A stretch of DNA of 64,000 nucleotides. It comes from Acaryochloris sp. CCMEE 5410 (GTDB lineage Bacteria > Cyanobacteriota > Cyanobacteriia > Thermosynechococcales > Thermosynechococcaceae). The stretch lies in assembly GCF_000238775.2 (NCBI RefSeq), contig NZ_AFEJ02000001.1:3472001-3536000 (forward strand), given 5' to 3'. Each line of letters opens with the position of its first letter. The first letter of the stretch is position 1. The notes beneath the pieces are model-generated. The model did no database searches. It was given only the letters and a program-made list of their open reading frames with translations, and had not been told where the DNA came from. Both the position numbers and the translations under genes were made by a program. Below, one piece after another: positions 59,472 through 64,000 of the stretch.

Positions 59472-60134
59472 ATGAAACTTAAAAATCAGCAGATGCTACC
59501 TCTCGACGAGCAACTCCGTCAACTGGTTATAGAAGCCCGCCAATACCCCTCTGGCCATTTGAAGCGCAAGCAATGTTTGACGCAGATTGTGAGGCTGATT
59601 GAGCAATCCCGTAAGCTCTGGCATGAGCATACGCCTTACTATGAAGATGCTTTACAGCAAACCTGGGTTTATTTTTGTCAAAATATTTGTGAAGCCGGTA
59701 CTGGGGAACAATATGATCCGGATCGGAGTAGCGTCATTACCTGGCTCAACCGATATCTGAAATGGCGATTACAAGACTTTCGGATTAACAAACAAAAGCA
59801 CCTCGCGAGATATACCTCTTCAGTACCTAGCGCCATTAACAAAAACCAAGATGCAACGGATAATCTCGCCGCTCCGCCCGATACTCCCCCTATTTTGGAA
59901 ACAACCCGTCATTGGGTGGAAACTGATCCCTCCGGCGAATTAAGAAGCGTTCATATCCAAAACCGACCAGATGTCACTTGCCAAGCTTTACTCTTAAGAC
60001 GTCTTCCACCAGAACAAGGCTGGGAGAAGGTTTCCGAAGAATTTAGCTTGCCAATTTCGACGTTGAGTAGTTTTTACCAACGACAATGTATGCCTCGCTT
60101 GCGTAATTTTGGGCAGTCACAAGGATATCTATAA
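59472..60134 (+). CDS. Sigma-factor-like protein of the DUF1822/CHAT module
   Basis: 220 residues. A helical N-terminal part contains YYEDALQQTWVYFC, SSVITWLNRYLKWRL and QDFRI, resembling sigma region 2 or an associated fold. The C-terminal RRLPPEQGWEKVSEEF with SSFYQRQCMPRLRNF resembles region 4. It is a paralogue of the gene at 20977. In other cyanobacteria I recall similar genes beside DUF1822 and CHAT-CHASE2 genes, which is the context here. Sigma activity is inference. The DUF1822 gene begins 23 bases downstream. Confidence 0.75.
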   Translation: MKLKNQQMLPLDEQLRQLVIEARQYPSGHLKRKQCLTQIVRLIEQSRKLWHEHTPYYEDALQQTWVYFCQNICEAGTGEQYDPDRSSVITWLNRYLKWRLQDFRINKQKHLARYTSSVPSAINKNQDATDNLAAPPDTPPILETTRHWVETDPSGELRSVHIQNRPDVTCQALLLRRLPPEQGWEKVSEEFSLPISTLSSFYQRQCMPRLRNFGQSQGYL

Positions 60135-60157: not shown

Positions 60158-61129
60158 ATGCTTCCCTTGATGAGCGATTCGTTAGCCTTACCAATTACCC
60201 AAGCCGCAAGACAAACAGCCCAAGACTTTGGGCAGCAACAGTCCACACCCGAGAAATACCAGCAAGTCTATCTCAATACCTTAGCGGTCTTAGCTGTTAA
60301 AGAGTATCTGGCATTGATGGAAATTCCTTACAATCTGGAAGCTAGCGATAGCTGGAATCCCGTAGTACGATTATGTGCAGACGTTGCCGACCTCGTCGTT
60401 CCAGGCATGGGAAGTTTGGAATGTCGCCCGATTTTACCGGACACGCCCACTTGTCTGTTACCCCCTGAAGTTTGGTCAGATCGCATTGGTTATCTGGTTG
60501 TCATCATCGATGATCAGCAGCGGAGAGCCCGCATCCTAGGATTCACACCCACGGTTCAAGCCGGTCAAATTGCAATAGATCAATTACAGCCCCTCGAATC
60601 CTTATTAGCTCATATCAGTGAATTTATGTTGGTAGACACAAAATCACCGACATTCGTGCAGACCGATCTAGGCCAATGGCTACAAGGTATCTTTAATCAA
60701 AGTTGGCAAGTGGTTGAAGACCTCTTACAACCTTCTACCCTAGAGCCAGCCTTTCACTTTAGGAGTGCAGCCACAACATCAACTGTGGAGCTGGATGATG
60801 ATGCCGTCCAAATCAAACGGGCCAAATTAGTCAAGTTCAAAAATGATGCAGAAGAAATTCCTCTCGTCTTGATCATGAATCTTCTGCAAACTGAATCAGA
60901 TAGCCAGCGTATGCTCTGTGTTCAACTTCGACCTGCAGGTCAACATGCCTCATTACCCGCTAATTTAGTGCTTAGGGTACTGGATAACCAGCACAACACA
61001 TTTTTAGAAGCTCAATCGCGGCAAGCAGACAACTACTTACAGCTGGAATTCAGCGGATTACCAGGAGAACAGTTTCATCTCGATCTAGAGCAAGGAAACC
61101 ACATCCTCACAGAAACATTTATTATTTAA
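60158..61129 (+). CDS. DUF1822 family protein
   Basis: 323 residues from ATG 60158 (ATG 60170 also possible). The DUF1822 N-terminal block includes YLNTLAVLAVKEYLALM and SWNPVVRLCADVADLVV, then LPPEVWSDRIGYLVVIID. Function unknown. It lies between the sigma-like gene and the CHAT-cyclase gene, 53 bases from the latter, on one strand. Confidence 0.85.
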   Translation: MLPLMSDSLALPITQAARQTAQDFGQQQSTPEKYQQVYLNTLAVLAVKEYLALMEIPYNLEASDSWNPVVRLCADVADLVVPGMGSLECRPILPDTPTCLLPPEVWSDRIGYLVVIIDDQQRRARILGFTPTVQAGQIAIDQLQPLESLLAHISEFMLVDTKSPTFVQTDLGQWLQGIFNQSWQVVEDLLQPSTLEPAFHFRSAATTSTVELDDDAVQIKRAKLVKFKNDAEEIPLVLIMNLLQTESDSQRMLCVQLRPAGQHASLPANLVLRVLDNQHNTFLEAQSRQADNYLQLEFSGLPGEQFHLDLEQGNHILTETFII

Positions 61130-61182: not shown

Positions 61183-64000
61183 GTGGATAAATTAGTTGTA
61201 TTGCGCATGGGAGAAGGTAGCTTTACACAGGGTTTCCCTGTGACCCTTCAAGTTGGCCAAGAAAACGACAGACCCTCTACTGAAATTATCGGTTCTCTTC
61301 CTCCCAATCCTAATATTCCCGAATATTATCAAGGGTGGCAAACCGCTTATCTCAACTTGGGATTAACCACCCGCTTAGATGCTCCCACAGAACAATTAAC
61401 CAACATCGACTGGCAAGAACTCCAAGTCAACTGCGAACAGGCCGCCCAAACCCTTCATCATGCATTGGACCAATGGCTTCTAGCAGACACCTTTCGCCCC
61501 GTCCGCGATAAATGGCTAGAGCAACTGTCTCTCCAAGATCACATTCGCATTATTCTGCAAACGGATAATCCGCAGCTCCAGCGCTTACCTTGGCACCAGT
61601 GGGAACTTTTAAATCGCTACCCTTTTGCAGAACTGGTCTTGAGCGCTCCCACCTATGAAGGCATTCAACGCCAATCCAGCTCTACTGCTGGCATCAAGAT
61701 TCTTGCCATTTTGGGAAGTAGCCACGGTATCAATACTCAAGCAGATCAAAGGTTACTCAATCAGCTTCCTCACGCAAATGTGACTTTTCTCGTAGAACCA
61801 CAGCGGCAAGAACTCACAGATCAGCTCTGGGACCAAAACTGGGATATTTTATTTTTTGCAGGCCACAGCCATAGTTCCAATCCCTGTGACACGGGCCATA
61901 TTTGCCTCAATGCCCATGAAACACTAAACATCAAACAACTGAAGTATTCTTTGCAGCAAGCCATTAGCAAAGGGTTACAGCTTGCCATTTTCAATTCTTG
62001 TGATGGTTTAGGGCTCGCCCATCACCTGGCCGATCTCCATTTGCCAGCCATGGTGGTCATGCGCGAGCCTGTGCCTGACCAAGTGGCTCAGTATTTTCTC
62101 AAGTACTTCTTAACTGCTTTTTCTAAGGGCAAACCCTTTCATTTAGCCGTCCGCGAAGCCCGGGAACGACTCCATGACCTAGAGCCTCATTTTCCCTGTG
62201 CCACATGGTTGCCGATTATTTGCCAAAATCCAGCCGAACCGCCTCCAACATGGCAACAGCTCCATCAAAACGGTGGGGACGACTATTCTTTATGGCGCCA
62301 TGATAATGATGCGGCGGCTCAAATTGTCACCATTGTCTTCACTGATCTAGTCAGCTCTACTGCCATTAAACAGGCGATGCCTGGCCTGGATGTCACCACT
62401 CGGAACCAACAGTACTACGACACAATCCTCCAACCTCACCGCCAACGCGTCACTGATAGTTTAAAAACCTTTGGCGGTCGTCTGGTTAAAACCGAAGGGG
62501 ATGGCTTTTTGATGAGCTTTCCAGGAGCCATGCAGGCTGCGCAGTGGTCCATTGCCCTGCAACAGCACCATGAACAAGATCCCATTGAGACACCGTTTGG
62601 CCCCTTGCAGGTCAGGATTGGCATGCATACAGGCAGCCCCTTATTGAATGCTGAAGATCATGACTATATTGGTCAAGAAGTCGACTATGCCTATCGCATT
62701 TCTGACCTAGCTGAAGGTGGACAAATCTTACTATCAGAAGTCTCAGCGGTGTTACTGCGCAATGCTGGTCTAACAGATATTACCGTATATGACCATGACC
62801 ATTGCCCCCTCAAAGGCATCGGCTCTGTCCCTATTTTCGAAATTCTTTGGGATAATCGGCAACCGCGCCCACTGCGGGGGAGTAAACCATCCACAGTCTC
62901 TAACGCTCTCAATACAGATCAGCAGCCTGCGAACAAAACACTCTCTGAGCCCATTGCTATACCGCCAAACGATGCAGAACCGCCTCCTGAAAAAGTCTCT
63001 CTGTTTTCTAAAGTTCATCGTTTTTGTCGCCGTCCTCTATGGTCCGTTTTGCCCACCAGTCTGTGTTTGACGGCAGCCATGTTAGGTATGCGAGGACTAG
63101 GCTTGTTACAACCCATGGAGTTTTGGGCGTTTGATCAGTTACTACGCCTTAGACCTAACGAAGGACCAGATCCCAGGCTCCTAATTGTATTGGTCACGGA
63201 TAAAGATATTCAGGTCCAAGGAGATCAGGCCCGGCGCAGTTCTTTAAACGATCCAACTCTGACGCAACTTCTCACCAAATTAGACGAGGCCAAGCCAAAA
63301 GCCATTGGCCTAGACATTTACCGAGATTTTGCCGTTGATCCTAACTACCCCAAGCTAACGACCCAACTCAAAGACAATGAGCGCTTAGTGGTTCCTTGTA
63401 AAGGGAGTGACTCATCCGGTGATAGCGATCCAGTCGGCATCGCCCCTCCATCTGAAGTTAAAGCACCTAATCGCATCGGCTTTACAGATTTTATCGAAGA
63501 TGGAGATGGGGTGTTACGTCGACATATTCTTCATATGAACCATGAGCCCGCTTCTCCCTGTCGAGCGTCTTTTTCCTTCGGGGCTTTATTAGCCTTTCAC
63601 TACTTGGAACAGCAGTCAAAACAGGCGTTTTCATTAAAGTTTGCGGAACCCAATGGTCAACCTTTGCAATTGCAGGTTCAAACGGCTCAACCAGGCACTG
63701 ACGCGACTCGAACCACAATCTTTAAACAACTACAACCCCATGGCGGCTATCAAGGGATTAATGATGACCGCATGAAGGGCTTGCAATTACTGCTGAATTA
63801 TCGAGCATTGCAGAAACCGACCGACATCGCCAAAACGGTAACTTTGGAGCAAGTTCTAACAGGTCAAGTTAATGCCAATGCTATTAAGGACAAGGTTGTT
63901 TTAGTAGGGGTCCAATCTAGTGGTTCTGGAGATTTTTGGTCCACGCCCTATGGTGCCGGCCCCACGCAGAAAGTTGCCGGTGTCTTTGTCCAGGCCCATA
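61183..64000 (+). CDS. CHAT - class III nucleotide cyclase - CHASE2 fusion protein (partial)
   Basis: 939 residues to the window edge, open at the 3' end. GTG 61183 is the first start after an in-frame stop and gives the family N terminus MDKLVVLRMGEGSF. A CHAT caspase-like domain (about 150-360) has His228 (FFAGHSH) and Cys273 (FNSCDG). A class III adenylate/guanylate cyclase domain (385-555) has Asp388, Lys436, Asp440, Asp494 and Arg505, but Asp501 replaces the usual transition-state Asn. A membrane helix (about 625-645) and a CHASE2 sensor domain follow, the latter cut off at the edge. All three parts in one chain is unusual. Confidence 0.88.
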   Translation, partial: MDKLVVLRMGEGSFTQGFPVTLQVGQENDRPSTEIIGSLPPNPNIPEYYQGWQTAYLNLGLTTRLDAPTEQLTNIDWQELQVNCEQAAQTLHHALDQWLLADTFRPVRDKWLEQLSLQDHIRIILQTDNPQLQRLPWHQWELLNRYPFAELVLSAPTYEGIQRQSSSTAGIKILAILGSSHGINTQADQRLLNQLPHANVTFLVEPQRQELTDQLWDQNWDILFFAGHSHSSNPCDTGHICLNAHETLNIKQLKYSLQQAISKGLQLAIFNSCDGLGLAHHLADLHLPAMVVMREPVPDQVAQYFLKYFLTAFSKGKPFHLAVREARERLHDLEPHFPCATWLPIICQNPAEPPPTWQQLHQNGGDDYSLWRHDNDAAAQIVTIVFTDLVSSTAIKQAMPGLDVTTRNQQYYDTILQPHRQRVTDSLKTFGGRLVKTEGDGFLMSFPGAMQAAQWSIALQQHHEQDPIETPFGPLQVRIGMHTGSPLLNAEDHDYIGQEVDYAYRISDLAEGGQILLSEVSAVLLRNAGLTDITVYDHDHCPLKGIGSVPIFEILWDNRQPRPLRGSKPSTVSNALNTDQQPANKTLSEPIAIPPNDAEPPPEKVSLFSKVHRFCRRPLWSVLPTSLCLTAAMLGMRGLGLLQPMEFWAFDQLLRLRPNEGPDPRLLIVLVTDKDIQVQGDQARRSSLNDPTLTQLLTKLDEAKPKAIGLDIYRDFAVDPNYPKLTTQLKDNERLVVPCKGSDSSGDSDPVGIAPPSEVKAPNRIGFTDFIEDGDGVLRRHILHMNHEPASPCRASFSFGALLAFHYLEQQSKQAFSLKFAEPNGQPLQLQVQTAQPGTDATRTTIFKQLQPHGGYQGINDDRMKGLQLLLNYRALQKPTDIAKTVTLEQVLTGQVNANAIKDKVVLVGVQSSGSGDFWSTPYGAGPTQKVAGVFVQAH

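What the first reader, a model, noticed from the sequence alone, without database searches (positions are those of the whole stretch)
61183..64000. One polypeptide combines a CHAT protease-like domain, a class III cyclase and a CHASE2 sensor
The sequence directly shows a complete CHAT His/Cys dyad (His228, Cys273), then a near-complete class III cyclase (two metal Asp, Lys436, Asp494, Arg505) and a CHASE2 start after a membrane helix. CHAT-CHASE2 and CHASE2-cyclase pairings are known in cyanobacteria; the three together would link an extracytoplasmic signal, cyclic nucleotide synthesis and a caspase-like activity in one molecule. One catalytic Asn is replaced by Asp501, so turnover may be changed or lost. 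Whether the cyclase is active or acts as a sensor is open.
Basis: partly seen in the sequence, partly recalled or inferred. Interest (0 to 1): 0.78.

Follow-up and report, generated by a model that had tools for sequence, protein, structure and literature searches.

The report
Membrane receptor with protease and cyclase
One cyanobacterial membrane protein carries an outward-facing sensor, a caspase-like protease domain and a cyclic-nucleotide-making domain on a single chain, and related bacteria appear to have added, swapped or lost these parts like plug-in modules.

Summary
The gene ends 314 bases past the window and encodes 1043 aa in one frame: CHAT (104-334), class III cyclase (380-548), a weak first membrane helix, CHASE2 (630-976) and three C-terminal membrane helices. 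The architecture is intact in three other Acaryochloris genomes and in a distant Geitlerinema. The operon is [sigma-like]-DUF1822-CHAT-cyclase-CHASE2-DUF928; its CHAT-CHASE2 base is in print as EACC2-caspase systems (PMC8195603). The added part is the cyclase, a rare subfamily (2 of 386 sampled phylum genomes), N-terminal to CHASE2 in all 12 intact or contig-cut CHASE2-linked members read. Trees suggest that the triple was put together more than once or had a part exchanged, and that one Acaryochloris lost the cyclase at the same locus. The Asn-to-Asp change is shared by the subfamily and does not show loss of activity: the nearest solved cyclase, Ma1120, has Ala there and is active. Most likely this is an extracytoplasmic receptor with two cytosolic outputs, cAMP and CHAT proteolysis. 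No activity was tested. New variant of a known kind.

The parts
59472..60134 (+). 220-aa ORF in the place where several related CHAT operons carry a sigma-70-region-4 protein; sigma-like, unproven
   Evidence: ORF. No Pfam sigma hit of its own; profile match to the sigma-like ORFs of related operons not significant. The same family of ORFs lies directly upstream of 13 of the 25 DUF1822 ORFs examined.
60158..61129 (+). DUF1822 protein, 323 aa
   Evidence: Pfam PF08852, E 1.2e-69
61183..64000 (+). CHAT-cyclase-CHASE2 gene (GTG start); ends 314 bases beyond the window, 1043 aa in all
61183..61491 (+). N-terminal alpha+beta region (residues 1-103), possibly the EACC2-type constant domain
   Evidence: Secondary structure of the AlphaFold2 model of the 81% identical ortholog; EACC2 identity not tested
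61492..62184 (+). CHAT domain (residues 104-334), dyad His228 (codon 61864) and Cys273 (codon 61999)
   Evidence: Pfam PF12770, E 3.2e-14; residues; dyad columns invariant in the 8 CHAT sequences of A8
62320..62826 (+). Class III nucleotidyl cyclase domain (residues 380-548): Asp388, Asp440, Lys436, Asp494, Asp501, Arg505
   Evidence: Pfam PF00211, E 2e-9; residues; Ma1120 by sequence and, with the ortholog's model, by fold (Z 20.6)
62848..63027 (+). Variable linker between cyclase and first membrane helix (residues 556-615)
   Evidence: 24-40% identical and dN 0.55-1.05 in five species pairs; pLDDT under 50 for most of it in the ortholog model
63070..64000 (+). CHASE2 domain (residues 630-976), cut by the window end; three membrane helices follow, all beyond the window end
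   Evidence: Pfam PF05226, E 4e-61 on the complete protein; hydropathy

Best explanation
It is a membrane receptor of the published EACC2-caspase type into which a class III cyclase cassette is spliced. The C-terminal CHASE2 domain faces outward and probably senses a small molecule or the DUF928 protein encoded next to it. Pairing of CHASE2 domains brings two cyclase domains together to make cAMP (Lys436 and Asp494 predict ATP as substrate). The same change switches on the CHAT Cys-His site, whose most likely substrate is its operon partner DUF1822 and/or the loose linkers of the receptor itself, leading to a transcriptional output through the sigma-like partner. Shown here: domains, residues, conservation, operon and the distribution of the modules. 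Inferred: the direction of gains and losses (from trees), all activities, the ligand, the substrate and the coupling.
For: Complete domains; catalytic set kept. The cyclase is the most conserved part (76-92% identical, dN 0.05-0.15) while the linkers beside it run free, so it is under selection. Nearest solved relative Ma1120 is an active adenylyl cyclase with a non-Asn residue at the site. DUF928 lies directly downstream, same strand, of C-terminal CHASE2 with or without CHAT (triple 5 of 5 with room to tell, CHAT-CHASE2 9 of 14, cyclase-CHASE2 5 of 5 with room to tell), against 0 of 8 CHAT genes without CHASE2 and 0 of 20 other CHASE2 genes. DUF1822 goes with CHAT: directly upstream of 26 of 29 CHAT ORFs, of 0 of 6 cyclase-CHASE2 genes without CHAT, and of 0 of 20 other CHASE2 genes. 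Seven of 8 ORFs tested upstream of DUF1822 in related CHAT operons carry sigma-70 region 4, four of them over the cut-off. A CHAT protease that cleaves a sigma inhibitor is known: Csx29-Csx30-CASP-sigma (PMC10028731, abstract and section 7).
Against: No activity tested. The window's own sigma-like ORF has no significant sigma match, its model was unusable (pLDDT 46.5), and Geitlerinema L055 has neither DUF1822 nor a gene of this sigma-like family in the 4.9 kb held upstream. G002 lives without the cyclase at the same locus. The cyclase sits between poorly ordered linkers, which argues against rigid mechanical coupling to CHASE2. Asp501 could still lower turnover. Five of 14 CHAT-CHASE2 genes have no DUF928 directly downstream.
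Confidence: 0.42

Rival explanations
1. The cyclase domain is catalytically silent: it binds ATP or another nucleotide and gates the CHAT protease, so the receptor has one output only.
For: Asp at the transition-state Asn site in all 14 readable subfamily rows; cyclase domains fused to the vWA component of conflict systems are in several cases said to be inactive (PMC7159879, passage); some subfamily members also change the base-binding residues (L052 and L053 Lys to Asn; L060 Lys to Glu and Asp to Asn).
Against: Metal aspartates, Lys, Asp and Arg are kept in the six readable CHAT-cyclase-CHASE2 rows. Ma1120 is active with Ala at that site.
Confidence: 0.25
2. It is a defence or cell-suicide switch: the signal triggers CHAT self-cleavage that frees the cyclase from the membrane, as part of the conflict systems described for multicellular bacteria.
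For: Kaur et al. propose autopeptidase activation for EACC2-caspase proteins (PMC8195603, passage); caspase, trypsin and cyclase domains recur as starters in such systems (PMC7159879, passages); CHAT, a trypsin-like domain or nothing precedes this cyclase; the linkers are the fastest-evolving parts.
Against: No PADLOC defence model matches the four operon proteins (E <= 0.01); the gene lies at one syntenic locus in the three Acaryochloris genomes compared by eye (own, G001, G002); Acaryochloris is recalled to be unicellular.
Confidence: 0.22
3. The CHAT part is a structural or protein-binding domain without peptidase activity, and the receptor works as a membrane adenylyl cyclase.
For: No solved CHAT protein matches significantly (best 8tl0, E 0.21), so peptidase geometry is unverified; no substrate is known.
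Against: The His and Cys are invariant in the 8 diverse CHAT sequences aligned; [quoted passage not shown]
Confidence: 0.09
4. The fusion is an assembly or annotation artefact.
For: G001 carries the gene in three frames.
Against: Intact in four Acaryochloris genomes (own included) and one Geitlerinema; low dN in all three domains.
Confidence: 0.02

Closest known systems
EACC2-caspase systems with ECF sigma and DUF1822 (Kaur et al. 2021, PMC8195603, passages seen)
   Same: N-terminal alpha+beta region, caspase-like domain, variable C-terminal domain that may be CHASE2, DUF1822 neighbour, sigma-like neighbour in related operons
   Different: A nucleotide cyclase lies between caspase and CHASE2; no such EACC2 fusion is mentioned in the passages seen (figures are not held). 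DUF928 has no occurrence in that paper's text.
Gemmata massiliana TRADD-N protein (PMC8195603, passage)
   Same: A nucleotide cyclase and a caspase domain on one chain
   Different: Joined through FGS and TRADD-N domains with the caspase C-terminal; no CHASE2 or membrane receptor mentioned in the passage
Classical CHASE2-adenylyl cyclases
   Same: CHASE2 plus class III cyclase in one membrane protein
   Different: Order reversed (cyclase N-terminal here). CHASE2 parts separated by a 92/97 branch; cyclase far from theirs; different residue at the second base-binding site in the three rows printed; no DUF928 directly downstream (0 of 8).
Ma1120 (Mycobacterium avium) and Rv1900c/LipJ cyclases
   Same: Nearest solved cyclases by sequence (Ma1120 1.3e-18; LipJ 1.9e-10) and among the best by fold (Z 20.6; 19.4); Ma1120 also lacks the usual Asn
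   Different: Not fused to CHAT or CHASE2 (recalled for the full proteins); Ma1120 has Ala, not Asp, at the site
Csx29-Csx30-CASP-sigma (type III-E CRISPR; PMC10028731, abstract and section 7 seen)
   Same: CHAT protease encoded with a sigma factor and its partner
   Different: RNA-triggered. DUF1822 as sigma inhibitor or CHAT substrate is conjecture here.
HetF (cyanobacterial CHAT protein; PMC8406250, passages seen)
   Same: CHAT domain, weak match (5.1e-7)
   Different: Far below the HetF family cut-off (28.4 against 1200 bits); no cyclase domain mentioned in the passages seen

Membership tests
CHAT peptidase | CHAT profile match above cut-off | tested here: met
   53.5 bits, cut-off 24
CHAT peptidase | Catalytic His and Cys | tested here: met
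   His228, Cys273; both columns invariant in A8
CHAT peptidase | Proteolysis | not testable with these tools
   Needs an assay
Class III nucleotidyl cyclase | Profile match and fold | tested here: met
   37.8 bits, cut-off 21.9; Ma1120 5d0h Z 20.6, rmsd 2.5, 158 aligned, from the model of the ortholog L045
Class III nucleotidyl cyclase | Two metal Asp, base-binding Lys and Asp, Arg | tested here: met
Class III nucleotidyl cyclase | Transition-state Asn | tested here: not met
   Asp501 instead; not a strict requirement, since Ma1120 has Ala and is active
CHASE2 receptor | CHASE2 profile, one helix before and three after | tested here: met
   207.3 bits, cut-off 26.3; three C-terminal helices by hydropathy, first helix below the 1.5 threshold but helical in the ortholog model
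Classical CHASE2-adenylyl cyclase | CHASE2 N-terminal to the cyclase | tested here: not met
   Reverse order
EACC2-caspase system | Constant alpha+beta domain before the caspase | tested here: inconclusive
   alpha+beta secondary structure predicted; not compared with the EACC2 alignment
EACC2-caspase system | DUF1822 gene in the neighbourhood | tested here: met
EACC2-caspase system | ECF sigma factor gene in the neighbourhood | tested here: inconclusive
   ORF in the right place without significant sigma match; 7 of 8 ORFs tested in related operons carry sigma-70 region 4
Csx29-type sigma release | CHAT cleaves a sigma inhibitor | not testable with these tools
   Analogy only

The most novel reading that the evidence does not exclude
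A one-chain, two-output transmembrane receptor: one extracytoplasmic signal, read by CHASE2 with the DUF928 protein, starts both cAMP synthesis and CHAT cleavage of DUF1822, which frees a sigma-like factor. The cyclase is an exchangeable cassette that joined at least two CHAT receptor lineages and can be lost again at a fixed locus.
Probability: 0.2. Interest if true: 0.75.

Novelty: new variant of a known kind. Interest (0 to 1): 0.48.

Why it matters
In EACC1 conflict systems a cyclase is described as displacing the caspase (PMC7159879, passage); here both sit in tandem behind one outward sensor (a Gemmata protein with both domains, but no sensor mentioned, is already in print). Acaryochloris offers a natural experiment: close relatives with and without the cyclase at the same locus (own genome and G001 against G002). 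That makes it testable whether a second messenger feeds back on a bacterial caspase-like protease. It also gives DUF928 and DUF1822, two families of unknown function in Pfam, a likely partner each (CHASE2 and CHAT), and it gives a clean case of a class III cyclase subfamily with Asp at the transition-state position.

Tried and rejected
Assembly artefact: rejected (intact in several genomes). Rearranged classical CHASE2-cyclase: rejected on present trees (the tool warns of long branches meeting). Decayed cyclase: not supported, but a silent nucleotide-binding domain remains open.

Single origin of the triple: in the CHAT tree, holding all triple proteins plus G002 in one clade is rejected (p-AU 0.004, group set by architecture; the long rows L127 and L142 left out). 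The cyclase tree alone does not decide (p-AU 0.063). Independent joining is one reading; CHAT replacement in Geitlerinema is another.

Sigma identity of the window's ORF 59472-60134: Pfam on 9 family members gave sigma-70 region 4 for one member only, at E 0.12; the paralog gave SigZ at 0.049 in NCBIfam, under the cut-off; PDB gave SigW at E 1.6 behind unrelated hits; profile comparison gave probability 3.7%; its AlphaFold model was too poor to search.

CHAT against solved structures: nothing by single sequence, 8tl0 at E 0.21 by profile. The fold listings were filled by cyclases, so CHAT and CHASE2 folds were barely tested there.

Literature: CHASE2 + CHAT domain + cyanobacteria gave 0 papers; CHASE2 + adenylate cyclase + CHAT gave 0; CHASE2 + cyanobacteria + cyclase gave 7, of which only PMC8195603 was opened. 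DUF1822 gave 2, the other (PMC9679502) seen only in the listing. DUF928, EACC2 or 'CHASE2 caspase' gave 4, all but PMC8195603 seen only in the listing. No search was made for the trypsin-like variant by name; a passage of PMC7159879 reports cyclases often coupled to an N-terminal trypsin-like domain. The library holds no preprints and misses most subscription journals; figures are not held. One search returned only unrelated papers.

Limits of counts: one search kept 80 of 148 confirmed loci, and one of its two search patterns contains the Asp itself; L051, L054 and L060 do not match that pattern and still carry Asp. In one search at most 8 candidates per genome were scored. The 24 Thr among the 77 outside rows may reflect alignment shift. 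Synonymous sites are near saturation, so dN rather than dN/dS is used. The CHASE2 tree used 43 of 49 hits, short spans (under 330 residues) being dropped. Of the 20 other CHASE2 genes, 19 have an N-terminal CHASE2; L156 has it C-terminal, groups with the N-terminal ones in the tree, and has a DUF928 gene facing its 3' end on the other strand. Of the 12 DUF1822 ORFs without a sigma-like-family neighbour, upstream ORFs of 8 were tested; L125, L135, L136 and L143 were not. Alignment A7 was made and not used further. Members of one genus are not independent.
Full report
What is there. The ORF at 61183 begins with GTG and runs out of the window. The window is G000:C1:3472001-3536000 of an 8.09 Mb genome in 23 contigs. 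Reading on gives a stop after 1043 codons. Pfam finds CHAT 104-334, Guanylate_cyc 380-548 and CHASE2 630-976, each above its curated cut-off. Hydropathy shows three strong C-terminal helices (965-983, 989-1007, 1013-1031). The first helix, before CHASE2, scores below 1.5 but is helical in the model of the ortholog.

Where it sits. Upstream on the same strand are DUF1822 (60158-61129) and a 220-aa ORF (59472-60134); downstream, outside the window, is DUF928 (L003:5357-6205). The DUF928 protein has a signal-peptide-like start by eye; no predictor was run. The same genome has a second operon of this form on contig C7, with CHAT-CHASE2 of 794 aa and no cyclase.

Who else has it. In the order (29 genomes, own included) the cyclase subfamily is in 7: own, five of six other genomes of the genus, and one of another genus (G009); it is absent from G002. 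In a sample of 386 phylum genomes it is in 2 (E <= 1e-25), and in the order of G088 in 2 of 42 (E <= 1e-30). A scan of the named species genomes kept 80 of 148 confirmed loci. Twelve cyanobacterial loci and one planctomycete MAG (L053) are at least 50% identical; the rest of the 80 are at 39% or less. Record titles place the close relatives in Acaryochloris. Reading the 12 cyanobacterial frames: CHAT-cyclase-CHASE2 in five (L045-L047 and Geitlerinema L055 complete, L048 cut by a contig end), cyclase-CHASE2 without CHAT in five (L049-L052, L054), a trypsin-like N-terminus in one (L056, the same stretch as L044/G088), cyclase without CHASE2 in one (L060). With the window's own protein this makes 12 CHASE2-linked members, all with the cyclase N-terminal to CHASE2; broken G001 would be a thirteenth.

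Which neighbour goes with which domain. HMMs built from the session's loci were run over 57 loci and tallied (same strand, within 300 bases upstream or 500 downstream), with Pfam adding two divergent DUF1822 genes (L127, L142). DUF1822 is directly upstream of 26 of 29 CHAT ORFs (exceptions L055, L135, L137), of 0 of 6 cyclase-CHASE2 genes without CHAT, and of 0 of 20 other CHASE2 genes (8 CHASE2-cyclase, 12 with other or unread partners). DUF928 is directly downstream of 5 of 5 triple genes with room to tell, 9 of 14 CHAT-CHASE2, 5 of 5 cyclase-CHASE2 with room to tell, 0 of 8 CHAT genes without CHASE2 and 0 of the 20. The script's own rows also count fragments of G001 and L138; these are left out of the 6, 5 and 20 given here. 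Nineteen of the 20 have an N-terminal CHASE2; the exception L156 is told under Tried and rejected. So DUF928 tracks the C-terminal CHASE2 and DUF1822 tracks CHAT. Upstream of DUF1822, 13 of 25 ORFs have a neighbour of the window's sigma-like family; of the other 12, 8 upstream ORFs were tested and 7 carry sigma-70 region 4, four above the PF04545 cut-off. The window's own 220-aa ORF has no significant match, so it is called sigma-like only.

History. In the CHASE2 tree (43 rows) the CHAT-CHASE2 and cyclase-CHASE2 rows lie on the other side of a 92/97 branch (not starred) from the CHASE2-cyclase and other CHASE2 rows. In the cyclase tree the family (14 rows, 97/98) is far from the CHASE2-cyclases. 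Within Acaryochloris, G001 (cyclase present, gene broken) branches first in both the CHAT and the CHASE2 tree. G002 (cyclase absent) groups with cyclase-bearing G006 in the CHAT tree (97/90); in the CHASE2 tree, which has no G006 row, it lies between G001 and the rest. Loss in G002 is the simplest reading. Its neighbouring genes match those of the window by eye, and the gap in its alignment begins where the cyclase begins. The CHAT of Geitlerinema L055 groups with the cyclase-free paralogs L004 and L128 (100/98); holding all triple CHATs plus G002 together is rejected (p-AU 0.004). The cyclase tree alone does not decide (p-AU 0.063). The triple was therefore put together at least twice, or one half was exchanged.

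Is the cyclase alive? It is the slowest-evolving part of the protein: 76-92% identical and dN 0.05-0.15 in five species pairs, against dN 0.08-0.19 for CHAT and 0.13-0.23 for CHASE2, with 24-40% identity and dN 0.55-1.05 in the linker after it. Asp replaces the transition-state Asn in 14 of 14 readable family rows (the fifteenth, G001, is split there); in 77 outside rows the site is Asn 47, Thr 24, Asp 3, other 3. The nearest solved cyclase by sequence and by fold is Ma1120. The Ma1120 paper says it has Ala there, is an adenylyl cyclase, and that A164N drastically cut the activity (PMC4215837, passages). The fold comparison used the model of the 81% identical ortholog L045, mean pLDDT 65.7.

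How it probably works. CHASE2 outside, with DUF928, detects a signal; dimerisation brings two cyclase domains together, as class III cyclases need (recalled); the CHAT dyad is switched on. Kaur et al. propose for EACC2-caspase proteins an autopeptidase step and transcription through the sigma factor (PMC8195603, passage). Csx29 gives a tested precedent of a CHAT protease cutting a sigma inhibitor (PMC10028731, abstract and section 7). The short variable linker between CHAT and cyclase and the longer one before the membrane helix have low pLDDT. That fits self-cleavage or loose tethering better than a rigid signal helix. All of this paragraph but the two papers' own statements is inference.

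Novelty. CHAT-CHASE2 with DUF1822 and sigma is published. [quoted passage not shown] The cyclase between CHAT and CHASE2, and the reversed cyclase-CHASE2 order with DUF928, were not found in the searches named under Tried and rejected. Verdict: a real, conserved, rare new variant of a known kind. On checking, the Gemmata precedent lowered the interest score from 0.50 to 0.48; no other odds were changed.

Noticed in passing
L044:7008-9551: Scytolyngbya protein with a trypsin-like N-terminal domain (MarP-like, E 3.8e-7, below that family's cut-off) before the cyclase and CHASE2; the usual His and Ser motifs (recalled) appear replaced, so it looks like a pseudo-protease.
   Followed up: partly
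L004:7110-12396: Second operon of the same form on contig C7 of the same genome, without the cyclase.
   Followed up: yes
L036:4638-10235: In Acaryochloris G001 the gene is split over three frames (MAG); the cyclase pieces still show the family motif with Asp by eye.
   Followed up: partly
L053:958-3072: Planctomycete MAG (Fimbriiglobus) with the same cyclase subfamily followed by what reads by eye as a STAND-type ATPase.
   Followed up: no
L060:5926-6852: Argonema antarcticum has this cyclase as a 309-aa frame without CHASE2, with Glu and Asn at the two base-binding sites, suggesting another substrate or none.
   Followed up: no
L155:4129-5052 and L163:5044-5934: DUF928 genes lie divergently beside N-terminal-CHASE2 genes, a second hint that DUF928 is a CHASE2 partner.
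   Followed up: no
L156:5488-9623: A 998-aa protein with a C-terminal CHASE2 and no CHAT or cyclase match, tail to tail with a DUF928 gene; its N-terminal domain was not examined.
   Followed up: no
L057 and L058: Two Chloroflexi ATPase-cyclases that look alike differ at the transition-state site, one Asp and one Asn: a natural pair for testing that residue.
   Followed up: no
G000 (whole genome): 47 matches to sigma-70 region 4 in the own genome at E <= 0.1, one of them directly upstream of a DUF1822-CHAT-CHASE2 paralog (L126).
   Followed up: partly
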